In this document: positions 7,425 through 36,892 of the stretch, one piece after another
Numbering within the stretch: position 1 is the stretch's first letter
Layout: each line of letters starts with the position of its first letter
Assembly: GCF_947498635.1 (NCBI RefSeq)
Contig: NZ_CANMKV010000009.1
Coordinates: 62,001-126,000 of the forward strand
Source of the DNA: an uncultured Microbulbifer sp.
Lineage (GTDB): Bacteria > Pseudomonadota > Gammaproteobacteria > Pseudomonadales > Cellvibrionaceae
Length of the DNA stretch: 64,000 bases
Reading direction: 5' to 3'
The notes under the pieces: generated by a model
Database searches by the model: none
What the model was told of the DNA's origin: nothing
Seen by the model: the letters and a program-made list of their open reading frames with translations, nothing else
Program-made: the position numbers and the translations under genes

Positions 7425-9842
7425 CTATTCTTGATCATTATAATAAGTCCAAATTTTTGATGTGTCATTAGAGCAATCAGTTTTTCCAAGTAAAGAGACT
7501 GATCCATTGAGTTCAGGTGCTAAGCAATGTCCAGTAGCTCTATTTTTTATTTGAAAAAAACTACTGCCATCAGAGTGCTGGAATGGGCCAATAAAATCCC
7601 AAGTGGTAGAATTGATTGTACTCTCACTCATCGCTAAGCTTGTATAACTAAAGCCATTATCTGTATCTTCGATATAGCTATCATTTTCTAGGTCAATGAT
7701 TAAATAACCACCATTATATGGAGAGGCTGAGATTCTACTTAATCCACAGTGACCTATTCTAAATGCAGTAGATTGTCCTGCTGTGCCACTTAAGTTACTT
7801 AAGCATTGATTGCCGGCCCCAAATCCACTTGCTAGAATCTTAATGGTTCTTGCATTCTCAGCGGTAGGTAAATCTACTGTTTCAATAGCAAATAACTCTC
7901 CTAATGATGGGAGAAACTCACAGGTACCTGCAACAAAACCTATATTTTCTTCATAAGCTAGACAATCTTGGGTCTGTCGATTTCTCAAGCTAAAGTTGCC
8001 ATCGGTATCTAGGTCAAAAAGATCCCAGGTGGCTACGTCTCCCAATCCATCTAAAAAGCGTATTCCATCGCCCTTATCTTTCATGTTCTTTGATCCAAGC
8101 GCTACACGATAACCATTGTTATATGGGTGCAGCTGATAAATAAGAGCATTGTCATCACAATTTATTGTTCCGTGACTAGCTATGCAGACATTTTCTCCAG
8201 TGTGGCGCAGGCGAACATACGGCCCATGGGTGGGAATATCTACTCCATTAATCTCCCAGGCATCAGGATCAGCGGTAGCACAATCACCCATTGTGAGCTC
8301 TGTATTTTCACCAACAATCAAGCATCTTCCCGTATTCTCATTGGCTATGGGAGAATACGCATCGAATAATGTAGTCTTAGGTAGTTTCCAAACCGCATCT
8401 GTCCCTAGACTAGAGCGTATAACAAAACCGTCTGAATCTGCACCTTTATCTTTGAAATTGCGATTATCAGTGACTCTAGCAATCCTAAATCCATCTAGGT
8501 AAGGTTGAATCATAAAGTGGTTTTGGCTTGAATTACAAATGTATTGTACTTTGCCATCTAATCCCACGCACTTATTTGTGGGTCTATGCTTCAGTCTTAC
8601 CCCGCTATATGTTTCAACCGCAAATGCTTCGTAAAGTTCTGCTGTATCTTCCTCAATCTGTGCGACAAACTCAGGTAAAACGTGGTTATACCAATCCCAT
8701 GAATCCACAATAGATGCTAGATTTTCAATAATGAGATTTCTTTCAGCTTCAAGATCAAACACATTTCCATCACGAATTCTTTCTAGATATGTGTCGCGCC
8801 ATTGATTGCAGAGAGAGTTGGAGCCGGCATCATACGTTTTATTGTAATAATTGTCTGTATATTTATTGCCGTTACATTCGGTTATAAAGGTTTCCCTATA
8901 TGCATTTAAGTCCGAACTTCCTATATTGACTGATGTCGAGATTAGCCCGGGAAAACTATCATTTTCTACAATTGTTATACCCAGTTTTTCTATTATATTT
9001 TTATAGGAGTCGAATTCTTCACCCACGATCCGATTGAATGTCAAATAGGTGTTATAGTCTGCATTGCATCCCGTCGGGGATCCATCAGGTGTTATTAAGA
9101 AATCATCAATTGATAATGAATCCTCAGCTAATATAGCTTTTAAAACTATAGGATTAATGAGTTGATCGCTATCTATGCCAGCCCAGGTCGGATAGTTGGC
9201 CTGACTGTAGCAGAAACGATTAAACTCTTTTCTGTGCAGTAATTCCATCTGGATAATAGAGAGGTAAGCCGGTGCGACATTAAATATTATGGAGTCATAA
9301 GAAGCTTTAGTTTTCGCCGCAGTTTCACTATTGATCTTATCCAGTTCTGTCGATATTCTCTCGCCGATTATTACTGCTAGGGCTTGAAATTTATCCGCAG
9401 TCGTTTTGTGATATGCTAAATTTCCTAAGTCTATAATGTTTGATTTTGCAAGAGACAGAATAGATTTAAGTTCGATTAGATCTTGCTCAAGAAAAGCAGC
9501 TTCCAAATTCGAAATTCTATTATCAAGCTGTGCTAGGCAGCCTACGATTTGTGGGTCTGCACCATCTGTCGTCTCTTCAAATATCCCACCGTTTGTTGCG
9601 CTATAAACAAAAGGATACAAGCCTGCGAGTAGTGAAAAAGAACCTGAAGCCCCCAGTGCCGTTGATACAACATTATTTGCGAGAAGAATCCCTACTGCCT
9701 GGCTATCGTATGCCACAGCCGATTTGGCCTCTCTTGTAGCGTAATCATAGCAGGCCCCGGTTAGCTCGGTCGCATTACTAGATTGGTGGGATATTGCGAG
9801 GGCAATCCCTGTGAACAGTCCAATCTTCCTAAGAAAGCTCAT
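7425..9842 (-). CDS. Large secreted protein with C-terminal ricin-type (beta-trefoil) repeats
   Basis: An 805-residue protein with a Sec signal peptide (MSFLRKIGLFTGIALAIS, then cleavage near SSNA-TE). Residues about 400-805 contain repeated units of the form N-x-TGRCL...GDCA, RQTQDCLAY...GTCE and RATGHCLAP...KTDC, spaced as in beta-trefoil lectin blocks, with recurring (N/D)xKDKG(D/A) turns. The first 400 residues are mostly helical, with a hydrophobic hairpin at about 45-75 (ILLANNVVSTALGA, SLLAGLYPFVYSA) and then long amphipathic helices. That arrangement recalls helical pore-forming toxin domains, but no catalytic motif is seen. Predicted to be exported and to bind glycans; a toxin role is inference only. 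The gene is A+T-rich, stands alone and lies among transposon relics, which suggests horizontal origin. Confidence 0.6.
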   Translation of the reverse strand: MSFLRKIGLFTGIALAISHQSSNATELTGACYDYATREAKSAVAYDSQAVGILLANNVVSTALGASGSFSLLAGLYPFVYSATNGGIFEETTDGADPQIVGCLAQLDNRISNLEAAFLEQDLIELKSILSLAKSNIIDLGNLAYHKTTADKFQALAVIIGERISTELDKINSETAAKTKASYDSIIFNVAPAYLSIIQMELLHRKEFNRFCYSQANYPTWAGIDSDQLINPIVLKAILAEDSLSIDDFLITPDGSPTGCNADYNTYLTFNRIVGEEFDSYKNIIEKLGITIVENDSFPGLISTSVNIGSSDLNAYRETFITECNGNKYTDNYYNKTYDAGSNSLCNQWRDTYLERIRDGNVFDLEAERNLIIENLASIVDSWDWYNHVLPEFVAQIEEDTAELYEAFAVETYSGVRLKHRPTNKCVGLDGKVQYICNSSQNHFMIQPYLDGFRIARVTDNRNFKDKGADSDGFVIRSSLGTDAVWKLPKTTLFDAYSPIANENTGRCLIVGENTELTMGDCATADPDAWEINGVDIPTHGPYVRLRHTGENVCIASHGTINCDDNALIYQLHPYNNGYRVALGSKNMKDKGDGIRFLDGLGDVATWDLFDLDTDGNFSLRNRQTQDCLAYEENIGFVAGTCEFLPSLGELFAIETVDLPTAENARTIKILASGFGAGNQCLSNLSGTAGQSTAFRIGHCGLSRISASPYNGGYLIIDLENDSYIEDTDNGFSYTSLAMSESTINSTTWDFIGPFQHSDGSSFFQIKNRATGHCLAPELNGSVSLLGKTDCSNDTSKIWTYYNDQE

Positions 9843-11563: not shown

Positions 11564-14179
11564 TTAAACAACAACTTCCTGGATCTCGGTGGCGGCAATG
11601 CGCTTGCCTTCTTCGGCAGACTTCTGGAAGTCTTCAATCTGATCGAAGTTCAGGTAGCGGTAGATCTCGCTGGACATGGAATCCAGGTTCTTGGCGTATT
11701 CCTGATATTCAGCCGGAGTCGGCAGTTTACCCAGGATGGCGCCTACAGAAGCCAGCTCAGCGGAGGTCAGGTACACATTGGCACCGTCGCCCAGGCGGTT
11801 GGGGAAGTTGCGAGTAGAGGTGGACAGCACAGTGCTGTTCGGGGCCACGCGCGCCTGGTTACCCATACACAGGGAGCATCCGGGCATTTCGGTGCGGGCA
11901 CCGGCTGCGCCGTAGATGTTGTAGTAACCCTCTTCCATCAGTTGGTGCTCATCCATCTTGGTGGGAGGAGCAATCCACATACGGGTAGAGATGCCGCCTT
12001 TGTGTTCTTGCAGCAGCTTACCGGCGGCACGGAAGTGGCCGATGTTGGTCATGCAGGAGCCGATGAATACCTCGTCTACCTTGTCGCCAGCGACGTCGGA
12101 GAGCAGGCGTGCGTCGTCCGGGTCGTTCGGTGCACAGACGATAGGCTCTTTGATTTCGGCCAGGTCGATTTCGATGACTTCGAGGTACTCGGCGTCGGCG
12201 TCGGCTTCCATCAGTTTCGGGTTGGCCAGCCACTCCTCCATGGCGCGCGCACGGCGCTCCAGGGTGCGCTTGGAGCCATAGCCCTCGGCAATCATCCAGC
12301 GCAACAGGGTGATGTTGGAGCGCAGGTACTCGGACATGGTCTCTTCAGACAGCTTGATGGTACAGCCGGCTGCAGAGCGTTCAGCAGAGGCATCGGACAG
12401 CTCGAATGCCTGCTCAACGGTTAGATCCTGCAGACCTTCGATCTCGAGGATGCGGCCAGAGAAGATATTCTTTTTGCCCTTCTTCTCTACAGTCAACAGT
12501 CCCTGCTTGATCGCGTAAAGTGGAATGGCGTGTACCAGGTCACGCAGGGTGATACCGGGCTGCATCTCGCCCTTGAAGCGTACCAATACCGACTCAGGCA
12601 TATCCAGTGGCATAACGCCGGTGGCAGCGGCGAAGGCTACCAGGCCGGAACCCGCCGGGAAGGAGATACCCATAGGGAAGCGGGTGTGGGAGTCACCACC
12701 GGTACCCACAGTGTCCGGCAGCAGCATACGGTTTAGCCAGCTGTGGATGATGCCGTCCGCCGGGCGCAGGGAAACGCCGCCGCGGTTCATAATGAAGTCT
12801 GGCAGTTTGTGCTGGGTGTCGATGTCCACCGGCTTTGGATAAGCGGCGGTGTGACAGAAAGACTGCATCACTAGATCCGCAGAGAAGCCCAGGCAAGCCA
12901 GATCTTTCAGCTCATCGCGGGTCATGGGGCCAGTGGTGTCTTGGGAGCCCACGGTGGTCATTTTCGGTTCGCAGTAGGTGCCTGGACGGATACCTTCAAC
13001 GCCACAGGCTTTACCGACCATCTTCTGCGCCAGGGTGTAGCCCTTGCCGGTATCTACTGGCTGATCGGGCTTGCGGAACAGATCCGAAACGGGCAGGCCG
13101 AGGGACTCACGCGCTTTGGTGGTCAGGCCGCGACCGATAATCAGATTGATACGTCCGCCAGCTTGAACTTCGTCCAGCAGTACGTCGGACTTCAGTTCGA
13201 ATTCAGACAGGACCTTGCCGTCTTCGGCCAGGATCTTACCGTCGTAAGGGCGGATTTCGATAATGTCGCCCATGCCCAGGTCATCAACGGGGGCTTCGAA
13301 TACCAGTGCGCCGGCATCTTCCATGGTGTTGTAGAAGATAGGGGCAACTTTACCGCCGATACAAATACCGCCACCCTTCTTATTGGGTACGCCCGGCATC
13401 TCTTCACCGAAGTACCACAGCACAGAGTTGGTGGCGGATTTGCGCGAAGAGCCGGTGCCGACTACATCGCCAACGAAAGCAACGGGGAGACCTTTGGCTT
13501 TAACTTCTTCGATCTGCTTCAGTGGGCCGGTAACGCCGGCTTCTTCTGGCTCCAGACCGTCGCGCTTCATCTTATACATGGCCAGCGCGTGCAGGGGGAT
13601 GTCCGGGCGGGACCAGGCATCGGGAGCCGGGGACAGGTCGTCGGTGTTGGTTTCGCCAGTGACTTTGAACACGGCAACTTTGATGCTCTCGGGCACTTTG
13701 TTGCGCTTGGTAAACCATTCGGCGTCTGCCCAGGATTGAATGACGGCTTTGGCGAATTCGTTGCCGGCTTTGGCTTTTTCTTCCACATCGTGGAAGGCGT
13801 CAAACATTAGCAGGGTGCCTTTCAGCTGCTCTGCGGCCAGCTCAGCCAGCTCTTTGTCGTCCAGCATTTCAACCAGGGTGTGAATGTTATAGCCGCCCAG
13901 CATTTGACCCAGCAGCTCTACCGCGTGCTTGCGGTCGATCAGCGGGGATTCCGCTTCACCTTTGATAATGGCGGACAGAAAGCCGGCTTTCACGTAAGCG
14001 GCTTCGTCAACACCCGGGGGTACACGGTGGGTGAGCAGGTCAACCAATTCCTGCTCTTCGCCTTTTGGCGGATTTTTCAGCAGCTCAACCAGGCCGGCTA
14101 CTTGCTCTGCGTCGAGCGGCTTCGGTGGGATGCCTTGTTCGGCGCGTTCTGCGACGTGTTTGCGATAGGCTTCAAGCAC
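11564..14179 (-). CDS. acnB: Bifunctional aconitate hydratase 2 / 2-methylisocitrate dehydratase
   Basis: An 871-residue protein (E. coli AcnB has 865) with the AcnB domain order: N-terminal HEAT-like domain (1-160), swivel domain in second position (170-380, [20 protein letters not shown]), then the catalytic 4Fe-4S domains. The three cluster cysteines lie in [10 protein letters not shown] and PGCSLCMGN. It interconverts citrate and isocitrate in the TCA cycle and dehydrates 2-methylisocitrate in the methylcitrate cycle. It is a single-gene unit with its own terminator. Start ATG at 14179 follows GAGGGACTTATCC on the minus strand, a good ribosome binding site. Confidence 0.97.
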
Positions 14180-14485
14180 GGATAAGTCCCTCTTGGTGTG
14201 TGGGGTGGCACCAACAGCGGGTGTAATTCCCGATCTTTGTACTTCTGCCGGGATTTTTTTTTCGAGGCCGCTGAAGGCGGGGTGGCGAATACTACAGGAA
14301 AGCCCTAGAGCTGTTAAGTTTATCGAAAAATCAATAATTTAAGTGAATTTCGACTATTTGCAGGGCGAATTTTAGTGTGCTGACAACAGCTATCCTGCCT
14401 CTTTTCTTAGTGGCTGAAACAAAATAGTCTACGCGCAATTTTAATCCAGGCCTTCGCTGCCTGAACGGCTAAATCTGGTTGATTG
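14180..14485. other. Divergent promoter region of acnB and the DUF1289 gene
   Basis: 306 bp between divergent genes. It contains a T9 run near 14257 and A+T-rich stretches at 14315-14350 that suit promoters, but no site can be assigned with confidence. Confidence 0.4.
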
Positions 14486-14941
14486 ATGTACAAAAAGGTT
14501 CGTACCCCCTGTATTGGTGTCTGCTCGACAGGTATTGGTGATGATGTCTGTCGTGGCTGTAAGCGTTTCGCCCACGAGGTGATCGACTGGAATGCCTATA
14601 CCGAGGAGCAGCGTCGCATCATTGCCGCAAGGCGAGAGGGTTATTTAATCAATGCGGTGCGCAGTCAGCTGGAAATTGTGGATCAGCCGCTGCTGCTCAC
14701 GCAGCTGCGCCACCAGCAGATACGCTTTGATGACAGTCAGAATGCCTACTGTTGGGTGTTTGAACTCCTGCGTGCGGGGGCCAGCCAGATTGAGGATTTG
14801 AGTGCTTACGGGCTTTGTCCAACCCCTCTGGCGAAGGGCGTCAGTTTGGTGGAAATCCGCCGGCGTATTGATGAAGATTTCTACGCTCTGTCAGTGGCCT
14901 ATTACCAGCGCTATATCGCCCCAGGCCTATTTAGGGACTGA
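14486..14941 (+). CDS. DUF1289 domain protein (Fe-S-type Cys motif)
   Basis: A 151-residue protein. The N-terminal 50 residues have the DUF1289 signature: TPCIGVCSTGIGDDVCRGC, then RFAHEVIDWNAYTEEQR, where four cysteines probably hold a metal or Fe-S cluster. The rest (60-150) is a family extension of unknown role. The start is taken at ATG 14486; a TTG one codon upstream is less likely. Its end overlaps the frame that becomes the lipid-kinase gene, so the two are probably cotranscribed. No function has been established for the family. Confidence 0.75.
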   Translation: MYKKVRTPCIGVCSTGIGDDVCRGCKRFAHEVIDWNAYTEEQRRIIAARREGYLINAVRSQLEIVDQPLLLTQLRHQQIRFDDSQNAYCWVFELLRAGASQIEDLSAYGLCPTPLAKGVSLVEIRRRIDEDFYALSVAYYQRYIAPGLFRD

Positions 14942-15041
14942 TGCGCCACCCGCATTTTCACGGCATAACACAGCTGCTGTTTTCCTGAGGCAGCTTATCC
15001 CTTTAGAATTACGCTCCTTCCCCGGTAATGGAGAGCCGGCT

Positions 15042-15986
15042 ATCAGCTCAAATCATGAAATTTCCCGGCGGGCGCTGCTGGTGCTCAATCCGAACAGTCG
15101 AAATGGTGCCGAGGCAGACCTTGACAGTGGTCTGGCGCGTTTAGAGGCAGCTGGGATTGCGGTGAAAACCCTATGCTCCCAAGGGCCCCAGGAAACCGAG
15201 GCGGCAATCCGGCAGCAGCACAAATCCTTGGACTTAGTGATTGTCGGCGGTGGAGACGGCACCGTCAGCTCTACTGCCCGGGTACTCATAGAGAGTCAGT
15301 TGCCGTTGGCTGTTTTGCCGCTGGGTACCGCGAATGATCTGGCCCGGTCCCTCGGTATTGTCGATCTGGGACAGGCTTTTGATGTCATCATCGATAACCA
15401 CCGGCAGGCCATTGACCTCGGTGTGGTCAATGGCCACTACTTTTTCAATGTGGCCAATATGGGGCTGGGGGTCAAAGTTACCGAGGCCCAGGATTCCGAC
15501 ATTAAAAAACGCTGGGGAGTGTTCAGCTACCTGAGGGCTTTTTTTATTGCTCTGGGGCGCGCGCAGAAATTTCGCGTGGATTTGACGCTGGACGACAAGC
15601 GTTACCGCATGGGCTCAATACAGCTGGCCGTGGGCAATGGCCGCTACTACGGTGGCGGTAACCTCGTGGCGGAGGAGGCGCGTATAAACGATGCCAAGCT
15701 CGATCTTTACTGCCTGCGCCCGCGCGGTCTGATGGAATTACTGGGTATGGCATTGTTGGTACGCAACGGCAAACACCATCTGGCGAAAAGAATTTTTAGT
15801 GCCAGCGCCGAGCGGATCGAAATCGAGACCAAGCCGGGCCTGGAGATCCATGCCGATGGCGAACCGGTTACGGAGACTCCGGCAACTTTTAAGGTGATCC
15901 CTGCGGCACTGCAAATCCTGGTCCCGCGCAACTCAGATGAACTCCTCAGTGATAGGGAGAAAGACAATGACACTGATTCGCACTGA
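15042..15986 (+). CDS. YegS/DagK-type lipid kinase
   Basis: The frame carries the DAG-kinase catalytic pattern: RRALLVLNPNSR, the nucleotide loop VIVGGGDGTVSS, LPLGTANDLARSLG, and the C-terminal IHADGEPV. These enzymes phosphorylate diacylglycerol, phosphatidylglycerol or sphingolipid-like substrates at the inner membrane. From ATC 15042 the product has 314 residues, close to the family norm of about 300. There is no in-frame ATG, GTG or TTG near the conserved start. The frame stays open back to 14802, inside the previous gene. A GGAGAG at 15030-15035 lies exactly 6 nt before ATC 15042, so a non-AUG start is proposed. An alternative is a much longer N-terminus overlapping the DUF1289 gene. 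Confidence 0.8.
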   Translation: MSSNHEISRRALLVLNPNSRNGAEADLDSGLARLEAAGIAVKTLCSQGPQETEAAIRQQHKSLDLVIVGGGDGTVSSTARVLIESQLPLAVLPLGTANDLARSLGIVDLGQAFDVIIDNHRQAIDLGVVNGHYFFNVANMGLGVKVTEAQDSDIKKRWGVFSYLRAFFIALGRAQKFRVDLTLDDKRYRMGSIQLAVGNGRYYGGGNLVAEEARINDAKLDLYCLRPRGLMELLGMALLVRNGKHHLAKRIFSASAERIEIETKPGLEIHADGEPVTETPATFKVIPAALQILVPRNSDELLSDREKDNDTDSH

Positions 15987-16407
15987 ATCCCAGGCCGCGC
16001 TCAACGATCTGTTCGTTGCTTTTGCGCGCAGTGAGGATGACTACCGGGCTGCCGCCGAGCAACTCGAAGAGAAGGCCGCGGCCGATTTTCTGTGCGCAAT
16101 AGCCTCTCAACGACACGCGCTTGCGCGACGGGTGGAACAGGCGATTCGCGCTGAAGGCGGTTTACCCTCGGAGCCGGACCCGGATCTCAAAGCTGGCGAG
16201 CAATTTTTGCAGAAGCTTGGGCCATTGCTGGCCGAGGATAAGACCAGGGAAGTCTATCAGCAGCGCCTCGATGCCGATCGTGCGCTGCTGGACTATATGG
16301 GGTATGAGGTGTTGGGCGCCCTGGAAAAAGCCCACTCGGGTCTCAAGGAAGAGTGCCGCAGTCATCTTGAGAAATCACTGTCATGGCTTGAAAAGCGGCT
16401 ACAGTGA
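15967..16407 (+). CDS. PA2169-type four-helix-bundle protein (DUF2383-like)
   Basis: A 146-residue, highly charged helical protein: MTLIRTESQAALNDLFVAFA, then SEDDYRAAAEQL and LEKSLSWLEKRLQ at the end. The pattern fits the DUF2383/PA2169 ferritin-like four-helix family, which in other proteobacteria is linked to envelope or oxidative stress; no biochemical role is established. ATG 15967 is preceded by AGGGAG and overlaps the end of the lipid kinase by 20 nt, indicating translational coupling. It converges with the Tus-like gene 20 bp away. Confidence 0.65.
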   Translation: MTLIRTESQAALNDLFVAFARSEDDYRAAAEQLEEKAAADFLCAIASQRHALARRVEQAIRAEGGLPSEPDPDLKAGEQFLQKLGPLLAEDKTREVYQQRLDADRALLDYMGYEVLGALEKAHSGLKEECRSHLEKSLSWLEKRLQ

Positions 16408-28759: not shown

Positions 28760-29427
28760 TTGTTTACCCGTGATAAGTGCAGTTCGCTGTTTATTTCTGA
28801 ACACGGTAGGACTGTAATACTCGGTGAGCGTTACCTGGCAAAATACTGGCAGAAAAAAGATGGATTGGGCGTTCATTGGAGAGAATCATGCTTTCGCTGT
28901 CGCAACACAAGGGGGTCTACTCGGTGGATTTATGCAGAGATCAAGTTGGATATATTTGATGTCTATGGCATGACCGATGCTCGGATAAAACAATTTTTTG
29001 ACTCAATAGAGTAATGCGCCAATTGTGCTGGCGTTGGACCAACTACTGGAGTTCAGTCTGGGCGTGGATAAATACAGTTTCTTGGCCAAATGCCGACATA
29101 TTATTACCGATGGAATCCGCTTGTCACTGGGGGAAAGCAAGCACGGGCAGGTGTTGGGTCCCATGTTCTTCAGGAAAATCTGCCCCTGATTGGTGAGGAA
29201 ACTTGAGCGGAAAAATTACAGTGCCTATATAGGGAAATACTGTTTGTCGTACGAAGGGCATACGCTGCAGATTCAACTGGCTCCATGGGAGCATCGGCAT
29301 AATTTTCCACCCCCTTGCACCTACGGGTTGATTTCCTGAATACGGAGGTACAGCACGAGGGGTTGCAGGCGATCTATAACGATGCGTCCTCGGGGTGGAT
29401 CGTCATAAACGAAAGAAGACAAATACG
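28760..29427 (+). pseudogene. 5' part of a decayed condensation-domain acyltransferase gene
   Basis: Scattered frames match the intact condensation-domain protein at 35588-36892. ESCFRCRNTRGSTRWIYAEI and KLDIFDVYGMTDARIKQFF match its residues about 58-98. FSLGVDKYSFLAKCRHIITDG matches the active-site region, with RHIITDG for HHIITDG. VLGPMFF and NWLHGSIG match later parts, and LNTEVQHEGLQAIYNDASSGW then VINERRQIR match the region before its C-terminus. Several frameshifts, stops (e.g. at 29012) and an internal deletion of about 130 codons after the active site make it a clear pseudogene. It is broken at 29427 by the 3-kb element and resumes at 32461. Confidence 0.8.
29420..29427 (+). repeat. 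Target-site duplication, left copy
   Basis: CAAATACG is repeated exactly at 32461-32468. In the intact paralogue the equivalent codons (Lys-Ile-Arg) are continuous, so both copies sit at the same gene position. Confidence 0.85.
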
Positions 29428-29455
29428 GGTGCTTGACTGTTTGGGGGGCAATTAA
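29428..29455 (+). repeat. Left terminal inverted repeat of the cargo element
   Basis: It starts GGTGCTTGACTGTTTGGGGG and pairs with the reverse complement of 32433-32460 at 22 of 28 positions, including 14 of the first 15. Confidence 0.85.
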
Positions 29456-29501
29456 TCGGAAGATATTAACTAACATGTTGTTTTTATTGTGGTTTTGTCC
29501 C

Positions 29502-30119
29502 TACCGCGTGCAACTGCGCCTCTACGATAGCGGCGACGCACTGGATAACCGCACCCTCGCGGATCTGCTCAACCGCCAGAATAGGGCGCTGATTGGCAAT
29601 GAAATTGTCAGTTTTGGCGAGGCCGAAGAAGTCAGCCCCAGCGTGTGGGAATTGGGTTATTTCCTACGTGGGCGCCTCGGCACTACGTCAGCCAACCACC
29701 CAGCCGGCACGCGCTTTGTATTGCTGGAACGCAACACGCTCAATTACATTCCCACCGAGCGCTACAACCTCGGCCAGTCGCTCACCTTCCGCGCCACCAG
29801 TATTGGCAGCGATAAAGAGACCCTCACCAGCTGCTCTTTTACAGGCGCCAGCCATACCGAATCCGCACCGGCCAATCTCAGCGCGCACCGTACAAATGGC
29901 CAGCTGGTAATTCAATGGCTCGGAGTAGGGCGCCTCGGCGGCCGCGCCGCCTACGATCAAAGCCAGTTTTTTAGCGGCTACCGGGTAACGGTCAACAGCC
30001 AAAGCACGGACACCACCGCAACCACACTCAACCTCGCAGATCCAGGCACCGCGACGATCACCGTCAGTCAGCTAAACAGCATCACCGGCCCAGGCCCGGC
30101 CGCACAGATCAGCGTATAA
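29502..30119 (+). pseudogene. 3' end of a phage/GTA tail-tip protein gene (5' truncated)
   Basis: The frame from Tyr 29502 encodes about 205 residues with the C-terminal pattern of GTA-like or lambdoid tail-hub proteins: RQNRALIGNEIVSFGEAEEV, then WELGYFLRGRLGTTSANHPA and GTRFVLLERN, ending in a fibronectin-like domain (VIQWLGVGR...GYRVTVNSQS). The sequence before it (WGAINRKILTNMLF) is unrelated and begins inside the terminal repeat, so the large N-terminal part is missing. It lies 16 bp before the DUF2793 gene, the normal order in tail modules, implying capture of a phage segment. Confidence 0.7.
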
Positions 30120-30135
30120 GCAGGAAACAAACACC

Positions 30136-30576
30136 ATGAGCAACACACCGAACAACGGCATTCCCTACGCACAAGAGGGCACCCTAGACCCCGCCGCCAG
30201 CCTCAACCAGGCCCTGGATACAGTAGACGCGCTGCTACAGCTGGAAGTGCAAGCCATACAGAACGATCCTCCAGCCTCCGCCAACGACGGTGACCGCTGC
30301 CTGGTTGCTACAGGCACCGGCACCTGGGCTGGCAAAGACGGCCAGCTGGCCCGCTATGTGGCAGACCCCGGCTACTGGCAATTTTTCCCGGCAAAAGTGG
30401 CCCTGATTAAAGCGGACGGCCTGCTGTATATCAACGGTAGTAGCGGCTGGCAGGTGGCCAACCGTCCGGCGGCACTGCCGCAGATTACTGGCGACACAAG
30501 CAGTGATCTGGCTGGGGTGGTCACGCAGATGTTAAGCGTGTTGAATGAGGTTTATTGGGATAACCAAGTGAGTTAA
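30136..30576 (+). CDS. DUF2793 phage tail-associated protein
   Basis: A 146-residue protein with the DUF2793 pattern: NNGIPYAQEG, QALDTVDALLQLEVQAI, DPPASANDGDRCLVATGTG, WQFFPAKVALIKADGLLYIN and GSSGWQ. Such proteins follow the tail-hub gene in GTA-like prophages and are thought to be part of the tail tip or fibre. There is a good ATG after GCAGGAAACAAACACC. The gene is intact, but its partner is truncated and no other phage structural gene is present, so it is probably a passenger with no present role. Confidence 0.75.
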   Translation: MSNTPNNGIPYAQEGTLDPAASLNQALDTVDALLQLEVQAIQNDPPASANDGDRCLVATGTGTWAGKDGQLARYVADPGYWQFFPAKVALIKADGLLYINGSSGWQVANRPAALPQITGDTSSDLAGVVTQMLSVLNEVYWDNQVS

Positions 30577-31083
30577 GGGCCCAAGCTGTAATGTCTGAAA
30601 CCGTTGTACTGAATGATTTTCGCTGTCGTAACTGCCGCAGAACAATTGGCATTTGAGACCGCTTCTCGCGCGGTTTCCATGACACCAATCGATAGTTGCG
30701 TGGTCACGATATCACCTATGGCACCGGGCACGATGGTGGCGATCGAATACTCGCCGTCTATGATTAAAGCATCGCAGAGGGTGACCTTCACCATGGGTAC
30801 GGACGCCCACTTCGACATTAGGATCGAGTTCATTTAGGCGCAGCGCAGCTAGCGTTCGAGTCGGATGACGTAAAACGGCAAAGAAATCAACCCGAGCCAG
30901 TACCGGTACGTTTGCCTGATGGGGCGGACGGACAATAAGCTTTAAGCGCTCAACTGGGTGGTTGGGTATTCGATGGGCTGCGTTATGGCCAACCTAATTC
31001 TAACGGCTGTCGCTCACTCCAAGTTAAAACTCCAAATTTTAATCCTTTAGCAATTGACGTTGAGTGGAGTTCATTAGCTTTTA
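30577..31083. other. Spacer inside the cargo element, upstream of nhaA
   Basis: 507 bp. Two overlapping frames on opposite strands (plus 30613-30837, minus 30573-30833) are open, but neither resembles a known family and one must be a shadow of the other. No transposase motif is visible. The last 100 bp are A+T-rich and probably hold the nhaA promoter. Confidence 0.35.
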
Positions 31084-32418
31084 ATGATTAAAGATCAAAA
31101 AGAAAATCCAGAAACCACTCGATTGCCAAAGGAGCTGGTTGATCGGCTGAAGAGACCCTTTGTACGATTCTTGCACATTGCGTCAGCCGGAGGGGCTGTT
31201 CTCCTATTGTTCACTGTTGCCGCTCTCGTTTTGTCCAACTCACCTTGGGCCGACTCGTTCGAACATGTCTGGGAGACACCCATAGGTTTCCGGGTTAGCT
31301 CGTTAGAGTTTGCACGCTCACTGCGAGAGTGGATTAATGATGGCCTGATGACGCTGTTTTTCTTTCTTGTCGCATTGGAACTCAAGCGCGAGCTGGTTCT
31401 CGGAGAGTTAAACAACCCTCGTATGGCTGCTCTATCAATATCAGCCGCCTTGGGCGGTATGATCGCCCCCGCTTTGATATATCTTGCGCTGCAATCAGGT
31501 CAACCCGGCCAAAATGGGTGGGGCACTGTCATGGCAACTGACACGGCGTTTGTTATCGGTTGCCTAGCTCTGCTTGGCTCGCGCATACCGCAAAGCTTAC
31601 GCGTCTTTATGCTGTCTTTAGCGATCGTTGACGATATCGGTGCCATTCTTGTCGTAGCCATCGGTTACAGCGGCAACATTGTCTGGGGTGCTTTGGCGCT
31701 GGCTGCACTTGGCTTAGTAGTTTTACGTGCCTTGGCAATACTCGGATTTCGCGGTTTTCCGCTCTATTTCCTGGTGGGCGGGCTCATCTGGCTTGCCGTG
31801 GATGCGTCCGGCATCCACGCCACCATCACTGGCGTGATACTTGGGTTGATGACTCCTGCGCGCCGATGGGTCAGCGACAATCGATTGTACGAGATACTGG
31901 ATCAGGTGATTGCGCATCCAGGCGTTCACGAAAGCAGTGCAGACACTAAAGATCGAGAGACATTGCAGATAGCCGAGGTTGCCGTACGTGAAACGCTGTC
32001 TCCACTAGAGCGCCTGGAGATATGGCTACATCCATGGGTGGGTTTTGCCATCATGCCGCTCTTCGCATTTGCCAACGCCGGGTTGCCGCTGACTTTTAAC
32101 GGCCTTGGTAATTCGGTCACAGTGGCCATTTTCTTAGGTTTCGTACTTGGTAAGCCTGTTGGTATTCTGTTGTTTAGTTGGCTGGCTATACGCTCGCACA
32201 TTGCGATTCGTCCACCAGAACTCAGCTGGCGGTTGCTAATAGGCGGCAGCTTGCTCGCCGGAATCGGCTTCACCATGGCGCTCTTCATAGCGAATATGGC
32301 TTTCGGTAAGAGTCTAATTGACAGCGCTAAGTTGGGAATCGTCCTCGCATCCGTTTTTTCCGCAGTGGCGGGTCTCACACTGTTGATGTGGCTGCCTGCG
32401 CGTGGGAAAACGCCTTAG
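31084..32418 (+). CDS. nhaA: Na+/H+ antiporter NhaA
   Basis: A 444-residue inner-membrane antiporter of about 12 helices (E. coli NhaA has 388). Key segments are present: LMTLFFFLVALELKRELVLG, VMATDTAFVIGCLALLGSR, the ion-site pair in SLAIVDDIGAILVVAIGYSG (two adjacent Asp), and the GFTMALFIANMAFG motif in a late helix. It exports Na+ (or Li+) for protons, supporting pH and salt tolerance. A cytoplasmic insert around residues 260-305 (VIAHPGVHESSADTKDRET) is longer than in E. coli. It is the only intact gene of clear cellular function within the inserted element, ending 15 bp before the right terminal repeat, so it looks like cargo. Confidence 0.95.
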   Translation: MIKDQKENPETTRLPKELVDRLKRPFVRFLHIASAGGAVLLLFTVAALVLSNSPWADSFEHVWETPIGFRVSSLEFARSLREWINDGLMTLFFFLVALELKRELVLGELNNPRMAALSISAALGGMIAPALIYLALQSGQPGQNGWGTVMATDTAFVIGCLALLGSRIPQSLRVFMLSLAIVDDIGAILVVAIGYSGNIVWGALALAALGLVVLRALAILGFRGFPLYFLVGGLIWLAVDASGIHATITGVILGLMTPARRWVSDNRLYEILDQVIAHPGVHESSADTKDRETLQIAEVAVRETLSPLERLEIWLHPWVGFAIMPLFAFANAGLPLTFNGLGNSVTVAIFLGFVLGKPVGILLFSWLAIRSHIAIRPPELSWRLLIGGSLLAGIGFTMALFIANMAFGKSLIDSAKLGIVLASVFSAVAGLTLLMWLPARGKTP

Positions 32419-32432
32419 GCATAGAGTCGCGG

Positions 32433-32460
32433 TTGATTTACCCAAAAACAGTCAATCACC
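32433..32460 (-). repeat. Right terminal inverted repeat of the cargo element
   Basis: Read on the minus strand from 32460 it starts GGTGATTGACTGTTTTTGGG, pairing with the left end at 29428. It is followed directly by the second copy of the 8-bp target duplication. Confidence 0.85.
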
Positions 32461-32468
32461 CAAATACG
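32461..32468 (+). repeat. Target-site duplication, right copy
   Basis: CAAATACG, identical to 29420-29427. The next bases continue the interrupted gene in frame (IRSINLPTGITPYG). Confidence 0.85.
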
Positions 32469-32630
32469 CTCGATCAATCTGCCCACCGGAATTACCCCTT
32501 ATGGCCTTTATTTGTCCATGGCGGCTTATGGTGGAATGCTTCACCGCAATTTTCTCTACAACGCTCTCGGCTTTAGCTGAGGTACCACGCAAAAACGTAG
32601 TGACCGCTGGCGCTGTATTTTAGTGAGGGG
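32461..32630 (+). pseudogene. 3' part of the decayed condensation-domain gene
   Basis: From the repeat onward the sequence encodes INLPTGITPYGLYLSMAAYG, then GMLHRNFLYNALGFS and a TGA. This matches LPTRLTPYGIYLSLAVFGGQ, then LRASFIYNVNCFS of the intact paralogue at 35588-36892. Beyond the stop, weaker nucleotide similarity continues to about 32630 (the region encoding NRWRMRL in the paralogue). It completes the gene whose 5' part ends at 29427. Confidence 0.8.
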
Positions 32631-35587: not shown

Positions 35588-36892
35588 ATGGCGGGCTGGG
35601 AGGATTCTTCGAAGGTACCCCTGTCGATAACTGAGCAGGGTATCTATAACTTGAATCACCGCAAGTCCTTGGCGGATTTGATTGCACGCGCCATGCAGAT
35701 TAAAGGCGACCTGGATGTCGAACTGTTTGAAAAAGCCGTGCCAGGGATTGTAAATACGTATCCTATTTTTCGCTGTCGTTACAAAGGTGAACCGGTTGTT
35801 CGCAGTCTTGGCGATGTAGAGCTGGACTATATGGATATTCGCCACATGAGTGTGGCCCACATTACCAGCTTTCTACGACAGTTCAGTAGTTCCCCCATGG
35901 ATTTGGGCTCGGACCAATTAATTGGGCTAAGCCTTTTTCGTACCGGTGAAGATGAATATATTTTCCTCACCAAGTGCCATCACATTATTACTGATGGTAT
36001 TAGTCTGTCATTGCTTTGGGCTGAATGCCTGACGGCCTATCTGAGTATGTCGGCGGGCAAGGTTTATGAATCCCAAGTGCAAATCACGGATTTTTCCGAC
36101 TATGTCAATTTTGAGGAGATGTACCTGGAGTCAACACGCGGGCAAAAGGCATATTATTACTGGCGAAATAAGTTGGAGTTGCAACGGGAGGCGGTGGAGA
36201 AGGCCTCCGACGAAGAAATAGCCTCGATCATTTGCGCTGAGGTGAATCACAAAATTGAGGGGGGGGAGTTTGCACAAATACAGGCCAATGCTAGCGCCGC
36301 TCAGGTGAGCCTTTTTGCCTACTTATGCGCCGCCTACCAGCTCACCTTGTGCGAATTTTTACATCACGACTTTTGGATGAATACCAATCTGTCGCTGCGG
36401 TTGAAGCGCGAACACCGGTTTATTTTGGGTCCCATGTTCCGCTACGCCAATTTAGCGGTTTGCCGGAATGAAACCTGGGAGGAAAAACTGAATCGCCTTT
36501 CAGTAGAGATTAGGCGGGCAATTCGCAGTGCTTACGCTGCCGACTCCATTGGCCCCCACGGCAGCATTGGACACGGACTAAATGCTTCCAATTGCTTCCT
36601 GATTACTTTTCTTCAGGCAGAAGAGCATCAGGAAGGGTTCACTGCAGTGTATACGGGTGAAATATCGGATTGGGTGACGGTAAATGATCAGTTAAAAATA
36701 CGCACGACGCCTTTGCCTACTCGCCTGACCCCTTACGGTATTTACCTCTCATTGGCGGTGTTTGGCGGTCAGCTGCGCGCGAGCTTTATCTATAATGTGA
36801 ACTGCTTCAGCGGCGAACTGGTGGAGAGCATAGTGAATCGTTGGCGCATGCGTTTGATCAACGGCTCGGGGGAGAAAATGCCCTCCTTGTAA
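35588..36892 (+). CDS. Condensation-domain (HHxxxDG) acyltransferase in the sulfolipid operon
   Basis: A 434-residue protein with the fold signature of NRPS condensation domains and PapA/WES-type acyltransferases. The catalytic motif CHHIITDGISLSLLW places HHxxxDG at residues 131-137. Further hallmarks are an N-terminal PLSITEQGIYNL, FWMNTNLSLR, RFILGPMFRYANLAV (the DFGWG-equivalent region is diverged) and a C-terminal RLTPYGIYLSLAVFGGQL. There is no carrier-protein domain, so it likely uses acyl-CoA or a separate ACP. It lies 26 bp after sqdB and overlaps no gene. By analogy with PapA proteins that acylate mycobacterial sulfolipid, it may acylate a sulfoquinovosyl intermediate; this is inference. 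A decayed paralogue lies at 28760-32630. Confidence 0.8.
   Translation: MAGWEDSSKVPLSITEQGIYNLNHRKSLADLIARAMQIKGDLDVELFEKAVPGIVNTYPIFRCRYKGEPVVRSLGDVELDYMDIRHMSVAHITSFLRQFSSSPMDLGSDQLIGLSLFRTGEDEYIFLTKCHHIITDGISLSLLWAECLTAYLSMSAGKVYESQVQITDFSDYVNFEEMYLESTRGQKAYYYWRNKLELQREAVEKASDEEIASIICAEVNHKIEGGEFAQIQANASAAQVSLFAYLCAAYQLTLCEFLHHDFWMNTNLSLRLKREHRFILGPMFRYANLAVCRNETWEEKLNRLSVEIRRAIRSAYAADSIGPHGSIGHGLNASNCFLITFLQAEEHQEGFTAVYTGEISDWVTVNDQLKIRTTPLPTRLTPYGIYLSLAVFGGQLRASFIYNVNCFSGELVESIVNRWRMRLINGSGEKMPSL

What the first reader, a model, noticed from the sequence alone, without database searches (positions are those of the whole stretch)
29420..32468. Cargo transposon: nhaA and phage-tail pieces between 28-bp inverted repeats, with an exact 8-bp target duplication
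Seen directly: a 3,033-bp segment starts GGTGCTTGACTGTTT and ends (reverse complement) GGTGATTGACTGTTT, with 22 of 28 terminal positions matching, flanked by CAAATACG on both sides. It interrupts a gene whose paralogue (35588-36892) is continuous at exactly this codon, so the pre-insertion state is known. It carries no recognisable transposase, only a truncated tail-hub gene, a DUF2793 gene and an intact Na+/H+ antiporter. This is the structure of a non-autonomous mobile cassette spreading a salt/pH tolerance gene, apparently assembled by capturing phage DNA. I know of no described element of this composition.
Basis: partly seen in the sequence, partly recalled or inferred. Interest (0 to 1): 0.85.

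Follow-up and report, generated by a model that had tools for sequence, protein, structure and literature searches.

The report
Non-autonomous Tn3-type transposon carrying nhaA
A 3-kb piece of DNA in a marine bacterium, holding a sodium/proton pump gene and a scrap of old virus, is bounded by the ends of a Tn3-type jumping gene whose own enzyme is missing, so it is a borrowed-engine mobile cassette of a kind already known, with an unusual passenger.

Summary
In detail: inverted ends at 29427 and 32461, the same bases outside both, a host gene that reads on without the insert, no transposase found inside. The ends belong to a divergent Tn3-family transposon. A 66-bp end model built without the window's ends still finds both (E = 2.4e-11 and 3e-12). 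Such ends bound a 12.4-kb element in Spongiibacter sp. IMCC21906 that encodes a 1020-aa Tn3-family transposase, has a clean 6-bp target duplication and interrupts a recombinase gene. The window's duplication is therefore probably 6 bp (AAATAC); the outer C and G of CAAATACG coincide with terminal bases of the ends. Three other Microbulbifer genomes have an uninterrupted homologue of the target. The nhaA is 99.3-99.6% identical in three species whose resident nhaA genes are 76-82% identical, so it moved recently; one of the other copies keeps the same right end. The own assembly shows no Tn3-family transposase, so the cassette looks stranded. Best reading: a Tn3-family mobile insertion cassette, a known kind with new cargo in a little-studied lineage. 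The phage part is a truncated tail-gene fragment. Movement and benefit were not tested.

The parts
28992..29426 (+). left part of the interrupted host gene (condensation-domain pseudogene), ending in one copy of the duplication
   Evidence: tblastn with the paralogue, residues 94-142 and 274-373
29421..29426 (.). left copy of the 6-bp target duplication AAATAC
   Evidence: 6-bp reading
29427..29502 (+). left transposon end (Tn3-type inverted repeat plus conserved subterminal part)
   Evidence: model R3 built without it: 29427-29489, 41.3 bits, E 2.4e-11; nearest end is L033 of G033 (75%), which has a transposase relic inside it
29503..30119 (+). C-terminal fragment of a phage tail-hub gene, truncated at its 5' side
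   Evidence: PF23666, phrog_4271; 86.8% and 85.7% nt to prophage copies in the own genome from 29503 on
30136..30576 (+). DUF2793 phage gene
   Evidence: PF10983; next to the hub gene in the prophages
30577..31083 (.). spacer upstream of nhaA; some 0.22-0.24 kb of it (about 30835-31058) is absent in the G004 copy
   Evidence: blastn
31084..32418 (+). nhaA, Na+/H+ antiporter, 444 aa, intact; its stop codon TAG lies in the fused transposon end
   Evidence: PF06965, TIGR00773 368.7 bits, aligned to 1zcd; the G004 and G006 copies end in TGA and share about 100 bp more
32416..32461 (-). right transposon end, 46 bp, identical to the end in G006
   Evidence: R3: 32461-32409, 44.2 bits, E 3e-12; 47-nt blastn match at 100% to L032 2566-2612, its last base outside the end
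32462..32467 (.). right copy of the 6-bp target duplication AAATAC
32462..32577 (+). right part of the interrupted host gene
   Evidence: tblastn residues 370-426 of the paralogue; uninterrupted homologues in G003, G013, G036
35588..36892 (+). continuous paralogue of the target gene
   Evidence: PF00668

Best explanation
It is a Tn3-family mobile insertion cassette: a transposon that lost its transposition genes and carries a prophage tail fragment and nhaA between its two terminal inverted repeats. A Tn3-type transposase acting in trans would bind both ends, join the element to the target by replicative transposition and leave a short (here 6-bp) duplication; the cointegrate would be resolved by a recombinase or by RecA. 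Shown: ends, duplication, uninterrupted homologues of the target, an autonomous relative with such ends, a Tn3 transposase and a 6-bp duplication, no Tn3-family transposase found in the own assembly, recent interspecies movement of nhaA. Inferred: that the 3-kb unit itself jumped as one piece, that the transposase came from a former resident or helper element, and replicative transposition by analogy with Tn3. The phage piece is most likely passive baggage.
For: End model without the window or L032 ends hits exactly 29427 and 32461. Such ends at L181 3794 and 16205 (Spongiibacter, named through) with TAAGCT on both sides and an unbroken recombinase reading over residues 1-277 when the flanks are joined. 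The 1020-aa protein that stops 83 bp from the right end is a Tn3 transposase (NF033527 512.1 bits, cut-off 500; PF01526 313.1 bits; Tn4430 transposase, E 3.2e-41). In G033 a decayed C-terminus of this transposase (79% and 68-69%) lies just inside the end. Uninterrupted target homologues in 3 of 48 genus genomes. Cassette nhaA 99.3-99.6% versus resident nhaA 80.4-81.6% among G000 (C25 copy), G004, G006. Tn3-type elements make 5-bp, sometimes 6-bp, duplications (passages of PMC13367494, and PMC4133298).
Against: No second complete copy of this cassette was found: the G006 copy has only the right end and the G004 contig neither. The own assembly has no Tn3-family transposase (173 contigs, so absence is not absolute). 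The two ends match only 26 of 38, and the right one keeps only 46 bp. Of the eight strong end sites in the genus besides the window's pair, seven were searched for a partner end with matching flanks and none was found; the eighth is a collapsed one of about 50 bp without matching flanks. Of 14 fetched loci tested with the Spongiibacter transposase, only G033's (L109) has a close (79%) relic beside its end, and no end of this type was found near the more distant G004 transposase pieces. So the link from ends to transposase rests on Spongiibacter and G033.
Confidence: 0.9

Rival explanations
1. Composite origin: two separate miniature Tn3-derived elements (TIMEs) or end relics came to flank the cargo and then moved together as a TIME-COMP.
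For: TIME-COMPs with inverted flanking copies and cargo are described (passages of PMC13367494, PMC4133298). The two window ends differ from each other and have different nearest relatives.
Against: Neither flank is a miniature element with its own pair of ends: only 76 bp and 46 bp of single ends remain. Which side each end comes from is unclear: the left end is nearest to the G033 end that has a transposase relic (75%), but is 56% identical to the Spongiibacter transposase-side end against 60% for its other side.
Confidence: 0.12
2. A tyrosine-recombinase element (SE/GInt/Tn554-like): the ends are recombinase core sites and the 6 bp a crossover spacer.
For: 6-bp spacing; in 7 of 9 end-bearing Microbulbifer genomes a tyrosine recombinase gene lies 0.4-48 kb inside the end, pointing away; in the other two (G000, G006) such genes are on other contigs.
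Against: SE borders carry target-derived bases on one side and donor-derived bases on the other (PMC10214605), here they are equal. Of 24 loci with or near such recombinase genes that were scanned (the loci of G015 and G036, which have the end beside the gene, not among them), one had the full end and one a 22-base partial match. The autonomous relative encodes a Tn3 transposase beside its end.
Confidence: 0.03
3. Chance or recombination: two old ends happen to bracket this DNA and the matching flanks are coincidence.
For: Many ends in the genus look like relics.
Against: Exact flanking repeat, homologues continuous at that codon, roughly 0.004 such pairs expected (scaled).
Confidence: 0.03

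Closest known systems
Tn3-family mobile insertion cassettes (MICs), as described for Xanthomonas
   Same: cargo between Tn3-family terminal inverted repeats, no transposition enzymes, dependent on a transposase from a related transposon (conclusion passage of PMC6304161)
   Different: other Tn3 lineage, cargo is nhaA plus a prophage tail fragment, host is a marine Microbulbifer
[quoted passage not shown]
   Same: non-autonomous, Tn3-type ends, cargo, 5- or 6-bp duplications (passages of PMC13367494, PMC4133298)
   Different: not bounded by two miniature elements; single ends of 76 and 46 bp
Spongiibacter sp. IMCC21906 Tn3-type element (L181 3794-16205, this work)
   Same: type of ends and 6-bp duplication
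   Different: 12.4 kb, has a Tn3 transposase and tyrosine recombinases, cargo includes Drt3a/Drt3b antiviral reverse transcriptases

Membership tests
Tn3-family mobile insertion cassette | terminal inverted repeats of a Tn3-family transposon | tested here: met
   transposase in the relative is Tn3 family
Tn3-family mobile insertion cassette | no transposition genes inside | tested here: met
   ORF list; Pfam on the four ORFs inside that were scanned
Tn3-family mobile insertion cassette | 5- or 6-bp target duplication | tested here: met
   AAATAC on both sides, 6 bp also in L181
Tn3-family mobile insertion cassette | cognate transposase available in trans in the host (bears on present mobility, not on structure) | tested here: not met
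   no PF01526 match in the own assembly, none of the L181 type; draft of 173 contigs
Tn3-family mobile insertion cassette | moved by such a transposase | not testable with these tools
   needs a trap assay
TIME-COMP | bounded by two copies of a miniature element | tested here: not met
   single ends of 76 and 46 bp only
[quoted passage not shown]
   no recombinase among the four ORFs scanned inside 29427-32461
[quoted passage not shown]
   identical on both sides, unlike the general SE case, but identity alone does not exclude it

The most novel reading that the evidence does not exclude
The parent transposons form an undescribed marine Tn3 lineage (TnpA at most 28.6% identical to the Tn3 transposases in the 15 listed best plasmid records; closer relatives, 36-79%, in marine genomes and metagenomes) that uses a tyrosine recombinase of the int34 type for resolution and prefers to insert into genes of that same recombinase family, in the manner of res-hunting transposons; nhaA cassettes and defence genes ride on it.
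Probability: 0.25. Interest if true: 0.5.

Novelty: new member of a known kind. Interest (0 to 1): 0.36.

Why it matters
It gives a clean case of an ion-transport gene, not a resistance or virulence gene, carried between transposase-less Tn3 ends in marine bacteria and exchanged recently between species. It also supplies end sequences and a likely transposase (Spongiibacter) for a Tn3 lineage, which makes such cassettes searchable.

Tried and rejected
SE/Tn554-type element: my first reading, because the ends sat near a tyrosine recombinase; dropped after the Spongiibacter element showed a Tn3 transposase. GGTTGGTTGACTGTTT repeats in G006, G042, G043: a different dispersed repeat, not this end. 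Plasmid search with the whole element: 63 records, the 20 listed matching only within nhaA at 60-80%. Plasmid search with a 113-bp end: 13 records, none covering 80% of it. Virus collection: two contigs with the first 18 bases only. Partner ends with matching 6- or 8-bp flanks at seven other loci: none; L032 has an inverted partial end 425 bp inside without a matching flank. ISVsa19 ends: no likeness by eye. Promoter scan of the element: none found. Papers: Microbulbifer with Tn3 and nhaA with Tn3 gave one listing each, neither about this by title; Tn3 family with 6-bp, target site duplication and tyrosine recombinase gave none; searches on mobile insertion cassettes are.
Full report
What was checked. 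A search of the own genome for the 16-base end with up to one mismatch found only these two places. Joining the flanks with one copy of the repeat restores the reading against the paralogue at 35588-36892. Three of the 48 same-genus genomes examined (the own one included), G003, G013 and G036, have an uninterrupted homologue whose alignment crosses the insertion point without a gap there (66-69% identity; orthology not tested). The host gene is a pseudogene with stops and an internal deletion; whether it decayed before or after the insertion is unknown.

What the ends are. A model from seven ends (R1) found 10 places with E at or below 1e-5 in 9 of 48 genomes of the genus, the window's two included. 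In 144 genomes of the family the same 9 matched at E 0.001, all in this genus. In 390 genomes of the order (drawn evenly, only part of the genus included) 8 matched, 5 of them outside the genus, one of these weak. In G455, identified as Spongiibacter sp. IMCC21906 through its transposase and contig length, two ends face each other at L181 3794 and 16205 with TAAGCT on both outer sides. Joining those flanks gives an unbroken recombinase reading over residues 1-277. The protein at 13060-16122 is a Tn3-family transposase; a third, partial end lies inside at 9831. A model from ten ends that excludes the window and its closest relative (R3) still gives 2.4e-11 and 3e-12 for the window ends, so the assignment is not circular.

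Why 6 bp. The first G of GGGTG is invariant in 13 aligned ends, the window's two included, and the Spongiibacter element has exactly 6 bp. The window's outer C and G then coincide with terminal bases of the ends; two of the three uninterrupted homologues read AAATACG at this place, the third AAATGCG. Tn3-type elements give 5-bp, sometimes 6-bp, repeats (passages of PMC13367494 and PMC4133298).

The cargo. The tail piece begins at 29503 and matches prophage hub genes in the own genome at 86.8% (C7) and 85.7% (C56) up to about 30569, so it is a truncated prophage remnant. NhaA is full length and keeps the ATD, DD and GKP motifs of the E. coli protein in the alignment with 1zcd; that these hold the transport residues is recalled, not from a call. 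The same genome has two other nhaA genes at 42-43% protein identity. The cassette nhaA is 99.3-99.6% identical among G000, G004 and G006; the resident genes compared are 80.4-81.6% identical with G000's C25 copy and between G004 and G006, and 75.9-79.0% with G000's C57 copy. This is strong evidence of recent transfer.

The sister copies. Between nhaA and that end lie an IS5-like transposase gene (split, below the curated cut-off) and further DNA, and the left side is replaced by a fragment that looks like a mercuric reductase end (recalled likeness, not searched). All this sits on a contig that also carries another Tn3-family transposase, about 25% identical to the Spongiibacter one, and whose two contig ends are inverted repeats. 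G004 has nhaA and part of the phage piece on a 3.3-kb contig without either end. In both, nhaA ends in TGA and about 100 bp more are shared; in the window it is fused to the end, which holds the stop TAG. I infer that the window copy is a deletion derivative of a longer ancestor.

Helper. Among 48 genus genomes, matches to the Spongiibacter transposase were found in 3: G004 (51% over the C-terminal third on one contig, and a 28% piece of the rest on another), G033 (a relic just inside its end) and G006 (two distant Tn3 transposases, 24-26%). The own assembly has none, and no Tn3-family DDE domain. Of 14 fetched loci and the window searched with this transposase, only G033's has a close relic beside an end, and the G004 pieces have no end of this type nearby. 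The tie between ends and transposase therefore rests on Spongiibacter and G033.

What it is not. SE core genes were not found inside, and SE borders in general carry bases of different origin, so the SE reading is unlikely. The element is not bounded by two miniature elements, so TIME-COMP in the strict sense is not met. Which side of the parent transposon each window end comes from could not be settled.

Papers. PMC10214605: outline with abstract, passages and the first of two parts of its background section. PMC9345347, PMC13367494, PMC4133298, PMC6304161, PMC5444012: passages only. Others: search listings only.

Limits. Genomes are one per species and several are drafts; end searches over more than 40 genomes used stricter filters that lose weak matches. 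No experiment shows that this unit moves or that its nhaA is expressed.

Noticed in passing
L181 3794, 16195-16254; L036 3818-3822: Two end sites lie inside genes of the int34 recombinase family (Spongiibacter; Microbulbifer G009), and L034 and L035 have recombinase fragments just inside the end; this looks like target preference for recombinase genes.
   Followed up: partly
G015, G036, G033, G009, G028, G045, G043: In these seven genomes an int34-type recombinase gene lies 0.4-48 kb inside the end and points away from it. G028 and G045 share one island, so they are not independent, and G009 has a second, truncated one outside the end.
   Followed up: partly
L181 5367-8778: The Spongiibacter element carries Drt3a and Drt3b, an antiviral reverse transcriptase pair.
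   Followed up: no
L108 9126-9159 (G043): An end followed almost at once by an inverted end, about 50 bp in all, like a collapsed miniature copy, without matching flanks.
   Followed up: no
L071, L068, L070: A dispersed repeat of roughly 70 bp starting GGTTGGTTGACTGTTTGGCGACAACAAATCAACC, in G006 among five tandem paralogous genes.
   Followed up: no
L072 1-1500; L035 and L037 near the recombinase: Short palindromes of the type CCGATATT...AATATCGG or CCAATAGT...ACTATTGG beside small gene pairs that look like toxin-antitoxin genes (by eye) and int35-type recombinases; possible recombination sites.
   Followed up: no
G000:C74 and C59 (L161, L162): Further tail-hub plus DUF2793 remnants in the own genome with other left break points.
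   Followed up: no
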